The notes under the pieces were generated by a model. That model was not told the DNA's origin. It searched no databases and saw nothing but the letters and a program-made list of their open reading frames with translations. From Candidatus Sulfotelmatobacter sp. (GTDB lineage Bacteria; Acidobacteriota; Terriglobia; Terriglobales; SbA1): DNA of 12,128 nt. Both the position numbers and the translations under genes were made by a program. The stretch's first letter is position 1. Each line of letters opens with the position of its first letter. The DNA is taken from assembly GCA_030151135.1 (NCBI GenBank), contig JASLEQ010000461.1, forward strand, positions 1 to 12,128. The letters run 5' to 3'. Shown piece after piece: positions 10,811 to 11,236 of the stretch.

Positions 10811-10816
10811 TCGTAA

Positions 10817-10845
10817 GGGATCCCTCGACTGCGCTCGGGATGACA
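10817..10845 (-). repeat. CHPERS-type dispersed intergenic repeat, copy 1
   Basis: The minus strand contains TGTCATCCCGAGCGCAGTCG, a sequence that I recognise as a frequent intergenic repeat, translated by gene finders as CHPERS. It matches copy 2 (11208-11236) at 25 of 29 positions. It lies directly beyond the terminator of the small RNA. Confidence 0.6.
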
Positions 10846-10851
10846 GATCGG

Positions 10852-10888
10852 AAAAAGCGAAAGCCCCGAGAGTGCGCCCGGGGCTTTC
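10852..10888 (-). terminator. Intrinsic terminator of the antisense small RNA
   Basis: A 10-bp stem (10859-10868 with 10879-10888; GAAAGCCCCG/CGGGGCTTTC on the plus strand) encloses a 10-nt loop. On the minus strand it is followed by GCTTTTTCC, which gives a five-T tract at 10856-10852. On the plus strand no T run follows, so it acts for minus-strand transcription. Confidence 0.8.
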
Positions 10889-10914
10889 ATGATACTGAAC
10901 GGCGTTTGCCAAAC
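10852..10914 (-). ncRNA. Predicted ~63-nt small RNA antisense to the neighbouring tRNA anticodon arm
   Basis: A minus-strand transcript starting at about 10914 from the promoter at 10921-10948 would consist of only two parts. The first is a 23-nt 5' segment (10913-10891), complementary over its whole length to tRNA positions 11042-11020: 21 Watson-Crick and two G-U pairs, covering the D-loop GG, the 3' D stem, the 5' anticodon stem and the whole anticodon loop. The second is the intrinsic terminator, beginning two bases later. GGC-AAAC-GCC in the small RNA and GGC-GTTT-GCC in the tRNA can form small complementary loops that could start the pairing. I infer a regulator that binds the tRNA or its precursor; no protein is encoded. 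Expression is unproven. Alternatively, a longer transcript from the tRNA promoter could use this segment in cis. Confidence 0.6.
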
Positions 10915-10948
10915 ATCTCCATCATAAATAAGCTATATCGAATGTCAA
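10914..10948 (-). promoter_or_regulatory. Strong sigma70-type promoter of the antisense small RNA
   Basis: On the minus strand TTGACA (10948-10943) is a perfect -35 element and TATGAT (10926-10921) a near-perfect -10, with a 16-nt AT-rich spacer. The predicted start seven bases on, at about G10914, is one base before the antisense segment. It is the best -35/-10 pair I found in the window. Confidence 0.7.
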
Positions 10949-10972
10949 CTGACTTTGGTGTCGAGTACCGCG

Positions 10973-11059
10973 AGGAGGGCAAGGGAGTTGAACCCTAGTG
11001 GCTGCGAGGCCACTCGACATTTGGCAAACGCCGTCCAGTACCCACTGGCAATACCCTCC
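10973..11059 (-). tRNA. Class II 8/4-type tRNA (allo-tRNA-like), anticodon GCC
   Basis: The 87-nt sequence folds completely. The acceptor stem has 8 bp: GGAGGGTA (11059-11052) with TGCCCTCC (10981-10974), including one T-G. The D arm is CCAG-TGGGTA-CTGG (11048-11035) with the GG needed for D/T-loop contact. A11034 is the usual purine 26. The anticodon stem has 6 bp with two G-T pairs (11033-11028 / 11020-11015) and the 7-nt loop TTGCCAA: U33, anticodon GCC (11025-11023), A37. The variable arm is AGTGGC-CTCGCA-GCCACT (11014-10997). The T arm has a 4-bp stem and loop TTCAACT (10996-10982). The discriminator is T10973; CCA is not encoded (CGC follows). A 7/5 fold would need a T-T mismatch, so 8/4 fits better. 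8/4 and 9/3 tRNAs were described by Mukai and colleagues (2017), including acidobacterial ones proposed as suppressors or regulatory RNAs. GCC and U73 suit glycine, the long arm suits SerRS; charging is uncertain. Confidence 0.85.
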
Positions 11060-11076
11060 TAAACGATCGTCCGCCA

Positions 11077-11110
11077 TGAGTGGATTCTACGGCGCGTTTA
11101 AGCGTGTCGA
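11077..11110 (-). promoter_or_regulatory. Candidate promoter of the tRNA
   Basis: TAGAAT (11089-11084, minus strand) is a fair -10; TCGACA (11110-11105) is a possible -35 with a short 15-nt spacer, or TTGTTC a few bases further out with 19 nt. The predicted start near 11077 would give an 18-nt 5' leader on the tRNA. It is weaker than the small RNA promoter. Confidence 0.3.
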
Positions 11111-11207
11111 ACAAGTTGACCCATCATTTTTCGGTTGCGAATTCCATTTCGGGAAACAGCTCGGGTAGCTGAAGACTCCAGCTCGGTTGAGTTCATTTGC
11201 ACGGCTA

Positions 11208-11236
11208 GGGATACTTGGACTGCGCTCAGGATGACA
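11208..11236 (-). repeat. CHPERS-type dispersed intergenic repeat, copy 2
   Basis: It aligns to copy 1 (10817-10845) without gaps and differs at four of 29 positions. It begins directly after the T tract of the rpoD terminator, the same relation that copy 1 has to the small RNA terminator. Confidence 0.55.

What the first reader, a model, noticed from the sequence alone, without database searches (positions are those of the whole stretch)
10852..10948. A dedicated small RNA gene that appears to be antisense to the anticodon arm of the adjacent tRNA
Seen directly: a perfect TTGACA, 16 nt, TATGAT; a predicted start at ~10914; a 23-nt run (10913-10891) that pairs without interruption with tRNA nucleotides 11042-11020 (21 Watson-Crick, 2 G-U); and a 10-bp terminator stem with five Ts starting two bases later. 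Promoter, complement and terminator leave almost no other sequence, so the RNA seems to exist only to pair with this tRNA. The pairing covers the whole anticodon loop and would block decoding and D/T-arm folding. I know of no described tRNA-specific antisense RNA with its own gene next to the tRNA; novelty is my inference, since I could not search.
Basis: partly seen in the sequence, partly recalled or inferred. Interest (0 to 1): 0.95.

Follow-up and report, generated by a model that had tools for sequence, protein, structure and literature searches.

The report
tRNA with its own antisense gene
Beside an unusual transfer RNA gene in what is likely an acidobacterium lies a tiny separate unit, with promoter-like and terminator-like signals, whose predicted RNA is complementary to that tRNA's anticodon arm; in dozens of related copies the two sequences change in step, so the small RNA likely exists to switch its own tRNA off.

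Summary
The tRNA (10973-11059, minus strand) has the 8/4 allo-tRNA form. I compared 102 related loci (86 distinct anticodon arms). In 88 the arm has an uninterrupted complement of at least 10 nt downstream; median score is 14.0 for own locus against 6.6 for swapped loci. A sigma70-like promoter lies at the antisense 5' end in 86 of 88 and a terminator follows in 87 of 88. Pair types interchange along the helix. Losses are one-sided: of 62 allo-tRNAs in 40 genomes, 58 have an antisense unit, and the four exceptions are a broken, a decayed, a gap-cut and one nearly intact tRNA (L083). By contrast, 27 of 71 antisense units have no allo-tRNA beside them. At the site behind rpoD, eight pairs carry six different arms, each with its own antisense; in two genomes only the antisense unit is left there. 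The likely mechanism is silencing by pairing of a tRNA that may mistranslate; a toxin-antitoxin-like role is suggested, not shown. No expression data exist here, and the founding allo-tRNA paper (Mukai 2017) could not be read. I found no description of a dedicated antisense gene for a tRNA in the papers searched.

The parts
10973..11059 (-). 8/4 allo-tRNA gene (8-bp acceptor, 4-bp T stem, 5-bp D stem, 6-bp variable arm), anticodon GCC, U73, no encoded CCA
   Evidence: ARAGORN tRNA-Gly(gcc); Rfam tRNA-Sec 47.1 bits vs cut-off 47; fold; family model R1 91.4 bits
11016..11042 (-). target in the tRNA: D-arm 3' part, anticodon 5' stem, loop and part of 3' stem
   Evidence: 27-nt uninterrupted helix
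10852..10948 (-). antisense small-RNA unit, promoter to terminator
   Evidence: family model R2 84.6 bits (the window is one of the 23 sequences R2 was built from)
10943..10948 (-). -35 TTGACA
   Evidence: promoter score of at least 8 at the antisense 5' end in 86 of 88 loci
10921..10926 (-). -10 TATGAT; predicted start near 10914
   Evidence: start not mapped experimentally
10891..10917 (-). antisense segment (pairs with 11042-11016); its first 3 nt may lie upstream of the predicted start
   Evidence: covariation
10858..10889 (-). intrinsic terminator stem-loop, T tract follows at 10856-10852
   Evidence: terminator in 87 of 88 loci
10959..10966 (-). tRNA 3' trailer, 8 nt complementary to 3' anticodon stem/variable arm (11019-11012)
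   Evidence: read; family permutation test
11068..11076 (-). 5' leader, 9 nt complementary (7 WC + 2 GU) to anticodon 5' stem and loop (11030-11022)
   Evidence: family permutation test
11084..11089 (-). -10-like TAGAAT upstream of the tRNA, no clear -35
   Evidence: TANN(A/C)T within -50..-18 in 60 of 102 loci, 52 of them at -26 to -30 (no shuffle control run)
11142..11155 (-). upstream palindrome-like element (TTCCCGAAATGGAA), possible regulator site
   Evidence: element at -112..-78 in 40 of 102 loci vs 4.4% of shuffles; strict form 27 of 102 vs 0.7%

Best explanation
The locus is a two-gene RNA pair: an 8/4 allo-tRNA gene and, 24 bp behind it on the same strand, a separate promoter-antisense-terminator unit whose predicted ~60-nt RNA is complementary over 24-27 nt to that tRNA's D and anticodon arms and would likely silence the tRNA by pairing with it. 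Shown from sequence: the complementarity, its covariation across loci, the positioned promoter-like and terminator-like signals, and the one-sided losses (antisense without tRNA is common, tRNA without antisense is rare). Inferred: the sRNA is made from a strong sigma70-type promoter in excess over a weakly or conditionally transcribed tRNA. Its 5' end would seed on the anticodon loop and invade the anticodon and D stems, so that the tRNA can neither fold nor decode; the duplex may then be cut by RNase III. Because few loci have a T run between the two units, transcripts reading through from the tRNA would carry the antisense in cis and fold into one long hairpin. The tRNA's own leader and trailer also complement the anticodon and variable arms, which could make the precursor prone to trapping before maturation. 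Why silence it: some allo-tRNAs insert serine or alanine in E. coli according to identity elements rather than anticodon (review PMC7609411), so a free allo-tRNA would likely mistranslate. The pair therefore probably behaves like a toxin and its antidote (this last step about 40% likely, untested).
For: Own versus swapped complement 14.0 vs 6.6; own above the swapped 95th percentile in 87 of 102 loci, above the 99th in 78. Standard pairs 68-72 of 72 at columns +4 to +11 with three to six pair types each, shuffled means 32-57. Promoter score at least 8 in 86 of 88 (base shuffles 14.5%), at least 9 in 77 of 88 (4.6%); terminator in 87 of 88 (10.7%). Co-fold binding energy: own median -17.1 kcal/mol, 84 of 88 below -10; swapped median -2.0, 11% below -10, n=290. 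In 18 genomes with several pairs, own 14.6 (n=45) vs cross 5.3 (n=80), one cross pair above 12. Of 22 non-allo tRNAs in fetched loci, four of them tRNA-Sec, none reaches 12 and two reach 9.6. Behind rpoD, eight tRNA+antisense loci carry six different 20-nt arms, each with its own antisense, two with one mismatch. 58 of 62 allo-tRNAs in 40 genomes have an antisense unit, while 27 of 71 antisense units stand without an allo-tRNA.
Against: No transcript, duplex or phenotype has been observed. Covariation shows selected pairing but not its direction (inhibition, sponge or chaperone). Eight loci have a unit whose antisense is mismatched, in some with an otherwise intact tRNA, and L083 keeps a tRNA with 7 of 8 acceptor pairs (as four antisense-bearing loci do) without any antisense. 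The helix ends are weaker: columns +0 to +3 give 63-66 of 72 and +13 to +15 give 53-56, and +1 is no better than shuffled. In the window the precursor with leader and trailer still folds best as a cloverleaf. Some tRNA-less units still show tRNA remains beside them and may be remnants rather than selected. U73 in the window differs from G73 in 80 of 102 relatives, so its charging is unknown; and the review says that some odd allo-tRNAs were not usable in E. coli. Loci are related, so counts are not independent; R1 was built from 33 of them; the genomes are mostly metagenome assemblies and may be incomplete.
Confidence: 0.77

Rival explanations
1. Direction reversed: the small RNA acts on other RNAs (mRNAs or foreign tRNAs), and the allo-tRNA is its sponge or decoy.
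For: Covariation is symmetrical; antisense units persist without a tRNA; in the window only the sRNA has a consensus promoter.
Against: In the window the antisense segment fills most of the sRNA between start and terminator, and it varies between loci, unlike an mRNA seed. The tRNA keeps its acceptor stem (92 of 102 with all 8 pairs), which a sponge would not need. Targets other than tRNAs were not searched.
Confidence: 0.1
2. Cis control only: the antisense is the 3' part of a long tRNA precursor, and the read-through hairpin, with leader and trailer, decides whether the tRNA matures; the internal promoter is secondary.
For: The tRNA-to-terminator transcript folds into a 27-bp hairpin, -91.7 kcal/mol, z -5.6. 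Only 5 of 88 loci have a T5 run between tRNA and antisense. Leader and trailer complements exceed all 2000 permutations; 6 of 16 hand-picked precursors fold better than their cloverleaf.
Against: A promoter at the antisense 5' end in 86 of 88, and 27 antisense units without an allo-tRNA, have no place in a cis-only model.
Confidence: 0.1
3. DNA-level inverted repeat of a mobile element or recombination site, kept matched by gene conversion rather than by RNA function.
For: Dispersed, multicopy, sometimes clustered units; REP-like repeats inserted in or near some.
Against: G-U pairs are tolerated; promoter and terminator are conserved, the promoter by two solutions, TTGACA or an extended -10; the tRNA acceptor stem is kept. 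No match in phage or plasmid records, and none for an 18-nt D-arm pattern in viral contigs. Neighbouring mobility genes were not surveyed.
Confidence: 0.03

Closest known systems
Allo-tRNAs (8/4 and 9/3 tRNAs; Mukai et al. 2017, known here through review PMC7609411: section 7 and passages read)
   Same: Found in Acidobacteria, 8/4 acceptor branch, long variable arm, varied anticodons; some insert Ser or Ala in E. coli by identity elements rather than anticodon; one group (UAU) was thought linked to transposons or toxin-antitoxin systems
   Different: The word antisense does not occur in the review's text nor in PMC7590224. The original paper was not available
SdsR/RyeA of E. coli, an RNA toxin with an antisense RNA antitoxin (PMC6610125, abstract and passages)
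   Same: Both partners RNA; [quoted passage not shown]
   Different: There the two are mutually cis-encoded and the toxin represses an mRNA; here they are consecutive on one strand and the target is a tRNA. Toxicity untested here
CreT/CreA (PMC8501985, abstract and outline)
   Same: RNA toxin acting through tRNA function, silenced with the help of an RNA
   Different: CreT sequesters a tRNA by codons; [quoted passage not shown] Here the tRNA itself is the target of pairing
Antisense tRNA transcripts in Pseudomonas aeruginosa and Buchnera (PMC8765398, PMC6867890, passages)
   Same: RNA complementary to tRNA observed in bacteria
   Different: Transcripts described as antisense counterparts of the tRNAs themselves; no separate gene with its own promoter and terminator in the passages seen

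Membership tests
allo-tRNA (8/4) | 12-bp acceptor branch split 8/4 | tested here: met
   Fold of 10970-11060 gives 8 acceptor pairs (plus an outer A-U) and a 4-bp T stem; 8 of 8 acceptor pairs in 92 of 102 loci
allo-tRNA (8/4) | long variable arm and long D stem | tested here: met
   6-bp variable arm, 5-bp D stem
allo-tRNA (8/4) | seryl identity (G73, SerRS charging) | tested here: inconclusive
   U73 in the window; G73 in 80 of 102 relatives; charging not testable
tRNA-Sec | UCA anticodon (usual) and 8/5 acceptor branch | tested here: not met
   Anticodon GCC, 8/4, Rfam score only 0.1 bit above cut-off; the four tRNA-Sec in the control set have no strong antisense, best score 10
RNA-RNA toxin-antitoxin pair (SdsR/RyeA kind) | antitoxin RNA complementary to toxin RNA, with own promoter | tested here: met
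   (RNAs predicted, not observed)
RNA-RNA toxin-antitoxin pair (SdsR/RyeA kind) | toxin not kept without antitoxin | tested here: met
   4 of 62 allo-tRNAs without an antisense unit: L099 broken, L223 decayed, L209 cut by a gap, L083 with one acceptor mismatch (the one real possible exception); 27 of 71 antisense units without tRNA
RNA-RNA toxin-antitoxin pair (SdsR/RyeA kind) | expression of the toxin alone arrests growth | not testable with these tools
   needs expression in a laboratory strain
T-box riboswitch | specifier loop and NCCA-binding antiterminator before a regulated gene | tested here: not met
   No T-box match among Rfam families; the antisense segment is followed directly by a terminator; downstream genes were not compared

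The most novel reading that the evidence does not exclude
A protein-free toxin-antitoxin family in which the toxin is a mistranslating tRNA and the antidote is an antisense RNA to its anticodon arm. The anticodon arm diversifies and drags its antidote along, each genome holds insulated pairs, and free-standing or tandem antidotes give immunity to allo-tRNAs encoded elsewhere.
Probability: 0.38. Interest if true: 0.97.

Novelty: categorically new. Interest (0 to 1): 0.93.

Why it matters
tRNAs are usually thought to be controlled by transcription, processing, modification, charging and nucleases. A dedicated, covarying antisense gene for a tRNA would be a new layer. It could also answer a puzzle, namely how acidobacteria tolerate allo-tRNAs whose anticodons do not match their amino acid: they appear to keep an antidote beside them. 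The family is large, so the pairing rule and the tRNA-less antisense units make direct tests possible.

Tried and rejected
Chance inverted repeat: rejected. Ordinary tRNA-Gly or tRNA-Sec: rejected by the 8/4 fold and the anticodon. T-box leader: no Rfam match. Plasmid or phage element: no match. Synteny through LpxA: 80 loci were fetched, none with the tRNA/antisense region in the fetched stretch (one 39-nt rpoD match only); the useful site is behind rpoD. A GAG-type DNA search in the class found 6 of 399 genomes, all seen before. Range: 63 of 398 genomes of the family of G002 at E<=1e-8; 1 of 199 in a phylum draw at E<=1e-7; 2 of 200 in the phylum of G690, both near 45 bits, one of which (L310) is tRNA-Ser by ARAGORN and the other (L309) unread. 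In the class draw 183 of 399 passed E<=0.001, but most matches below about 42 bits look like ordinary long-arm tRNAs and were not used.

Rows dropped before counts: one search gave 60 matches; two duplicates (L092's copy of L082, and L166 = L119) were left out. One search gave 50; three duplicates (two in L198, one in L203) were left out. Of the resulting 105, three (L143, L227, L232) lack the D-arm motif and were dropped, leaving 102; L233, another kind of tRNA, stays counted as a miss. One search used only the 88 loci that have a helix, so its pair counts are conditional on that choice; one search uses all 102. One search used 62 of the 66 tRNA matches, leaving out four of 38-40 bits. One search folded 16 of 102 precursors, picked by hand. 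The position-33 and anticodon table is unreliable for loci whose loop register could not be set, so I use only the fixed column. A weak antisense-model match in L290 (30.6 bits) was not read.

Full report
What is in the window. The minus strand reads: C-terminal part of a sigma-70 protein (ends 11309; Pfam), then a tRNA-like gene 11059-10973, then a promoter-like pair TTGACA-16-TATGAT, a 27-nt complement of the tRNA (10917-10891), a terminator, and a 174-aa ORF without Pfam match. The tRNA folds as an 8/4 cloverleaf with a 6-bp variable arm and GCC anticodon; Rfam lists it as tRNA-Sec at 47.1 bits, cut-off 47. This is the allo-tRNA architecture described in the review PMC7609411 (section 7 read). 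The best LpxA relative, 88% identical, is Candidatus Sulfotelmatobacter, so the host is likely an acidobacterium.

Family. The 211-nt unit matched 11 of 20 relatives, and the tRNA stretch 23 of 250 genomes of the family of G002. A covariance model built from 33 of these tRNAs (A1, R1) found 63 of 398 genomes at E<=1e-8, up to five copies per genome. In the class draw (399 genomes), nine of the ten loci L135-L144 carry an antisense (L141 imperfect; L135 is the locus also read as L121); L143, which lacks the D-arm motif, does not.

Pairing test. For 102 loci (86 distinct 20-nt anticodon arms) the best uninterrupted complement between that arm and its own downstream 35-260 nt has median score 14.0. 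The same arm against the downstream DNA of other loci (arms differing at 4 or more positions) gives 6.6; 87 of 102 exceed the swapped 95th percentile, 78 the 99th, and 68 beat every swap. With one sequence per distinct 16-nt arm (72, from loci that have a helix), columns +4 to +11 form standard pairs in 68-72 of 72, with C-G, T-A, G-C and A-T interchanging in most columns; shuffled means are 32-57. The ends are weaker: +0 to +3 give 63-66 (shuffled 49-61), +12 gives 70 (67), +13 to +15 give 53-56 (31-44). Other tRNAs in the fetched loci, including four tRNA-Sec: 0 of 22 reach 12, 2 reach 9.6, median 6.75. In 18 genomes holding several pairs, own median is 14.6 (n=45), cross 5.3 (n=80), one cross pair above 12. 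Predicted binding energy is -17.1 kcal/mol for own pairs (88) and -2.0 for swapped (290).

Gene signals. At the antisense 5' end a promoter scoring at least 8 is present in 86 of 88 loci, base-shuffled 14.5% (at least 9: 77 of 88, 4.6%); some use TTGACA plus a -10, others an extended -10 (TGCTATAAT). A terminator follows in 87 of 88, shuffled 10.7%. Only 5 of 88 have a T5 run between tRNA and antisense, so a tRNA transcript would tend to run into the antisense.

Losses are one-sided. Fourteen of 102 loci lack a strict complement. Eight still have a unit, by eye, but with mismatches (L089, L119, L141, L187, L212, L217, L220, L224; in L212 and L224 the tRNA is damaged too). L120 is cut by a contig end and L209 by an assembly gap. 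L223 has a decayed tRNA, L099 one broken by a repeat insertion. L083 has one acceptor mismatch (7 of 8 pairs, as in four antisense-bearing loci) and is the one possible real exception. L233 is another kind of tRNA. Conversely, a model of the antisense unit (R2 from 23 sequences) finds 71 units in 40 genomes (33 positive). Of the 62 allo-tRNAs of at least 50 bits in the same 40 genomes, 44 have such a unit within 130 nt; the other 18 were checked by sequence: 14 have a unit that R2 missed (one, L217, mismatched), 4 have none (L083, L099, L209, L223). So 58 of 62 tRNAs have a unit, while 27 of 71 units have no allo-tRNA within 130 nt upstream. I read 25 of the 27. At least four of these still show tRNA or trailer remains (in G002, G008:C15, G017:C33 and G251:C58). 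Sixteen of the 25 pair with at least one of the 102 known arms at score 13 or more; reversed sequences reach at most 11.3. G007, G010 and G018 carry such units but no allo-tRNA above 40 bits; the assemblies may be incomplete.

Site behind rpoD. Of 30 genomes searched, 27 gave an rpoD match. The pair is found there in the window and in G002, G012, G014, G625, G642, G096 and G041, with six different arms, each matched by its antisense, with one mismatch in G014 and G642. In G018 and G009 only an antisense unit is left directly behind rpoD (the G009 unit matches no known arm well). In G251 a unit stands beside a decayed tRNA. In G064 two tRNA-less units in tandem come first and a complete pair follows about 0.9 kb further on. 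G005 has L083, the tRNA without antisense. The 15 other genomes show neither at the thresholds used, apart from one weak unread match in L290; several of these stretches end at contig ends.

Further structure. The 5' leader (mostly around -13 to -18) complements the anticodon 5' stem and loop, and the 3' trailer complements the 3' anticodon stem and variable arm. Over 85 distinct arms both means exceed all 2000 permutations of locus labels (leader 6.49 vs 4.72, trailer 8.61 vs 6.54), although single loci exceed the swapped 95th percentile only in 29 (leader) and 15 (trailer) of 102. Of 16 hand-picked precursors, 6 have a lower energy than their cloverleaf form, clearly a two-hairpin leader/trailer fold in L121, L182 and L231; the window's precursor does not. 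Upstream of the tRNA lies a palindrome-like element near -90 in 40 of 102 loci against 4.4% of shuffles, so tRNA transcription may be regulated.

Mechanism. I take the antisense to be an inhibitor: pairing over the D and anticodon arms would prevent folding and decoding. The review reports that some allo-tRNAs are active in E. coli and insert amino acids by identity elements rather than anticodon, that is, they mistranslate, and that others were not usable there. An antidote kept almost wherever the tRNA is kept, and often kept alone, is what a toxin-antidote pair would leave. Toxicity, expression and direction of action are untested.

Novelty. Searches, judged by their listings: antisense RNA with allo-tRNA (none); allo-tRNA papers; small RNAs complementary to tRNA (1, 21 and 10 papers); RNA toxins and toxic tRNAs (10 of 282, 8 of 18 and 15 of 532 listed); and two of gkw898, Acidobacteri and antisense (15 of 71 listed). 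None named a dedicated antisense gene for a tRNA. Known antisense tRNA transcripts are counterparts of the tRNAs themselves (passages). The founding paper was not held; its abstract, as I recall it, speaks of possible regulatory noncoding RNAs, so it may contain hints. I rate the system as categorically new because no known kind that I found pairs a tRNA gene with its own covarying antisense gene; if the toxin-antidote role proves right it would also be a new branch of RNA-only toxin-antitoxin pairs.

Noticed in passing
L273:58-176; L299:960-1061; L276:531-738; L105 (second unit, G096:C70:1753-1850): Antisense units in tandem (L276, L105), and two units (L273, L299) that seem to carry two different antisense segments in one transcript, as if serving two tRNAs.
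   Followed up: partly
window 11142-11155 and upstream of many relatives: Palindrome-like element (form TTCCCRAATYGGGA) about 90-100 nt upstream of the tRNA, with a -10-like TAGAAT/TACAAT near -27 and no clear -35; suggests regulated tRNA transcription.
   Followed up: partly
L099, L128, L224: REP-like repeats inserted in the variable arm of allo-tRNAs; an antisense unit is kept in L128 and (mismatched) L224.
   Followed up: no
L098, L161 (same type as L091, L100): A GAG-anticodon type sits directly upstream of an ORF starting M(P/S)KLRIGSRGS, which looks like hemC (read from the DNA; gene name recalled, not searched).
   Followed up: no
72 distinct arms, column +8: The column that is position 33 in the window's register is T in 46, C in 18 and G in 8 of 72, although U33 is nearly universal in tRNAs (recalled); the G cases may be register shifts. 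Many of these tRNAs may decode poorly.
   Followed up: partly
L148, L150, L154, L227: tRNAs of the UAU (Ile) group show no strong downstream antisense (scores 7 to 9.6), unlike the family studied here.
   Followed up: partly
window 10816-10845 and 11207-11236: Two copies of a 30-nt repeat, 87% identical, flank the tRNA/antisense pair.
   Followed up: no
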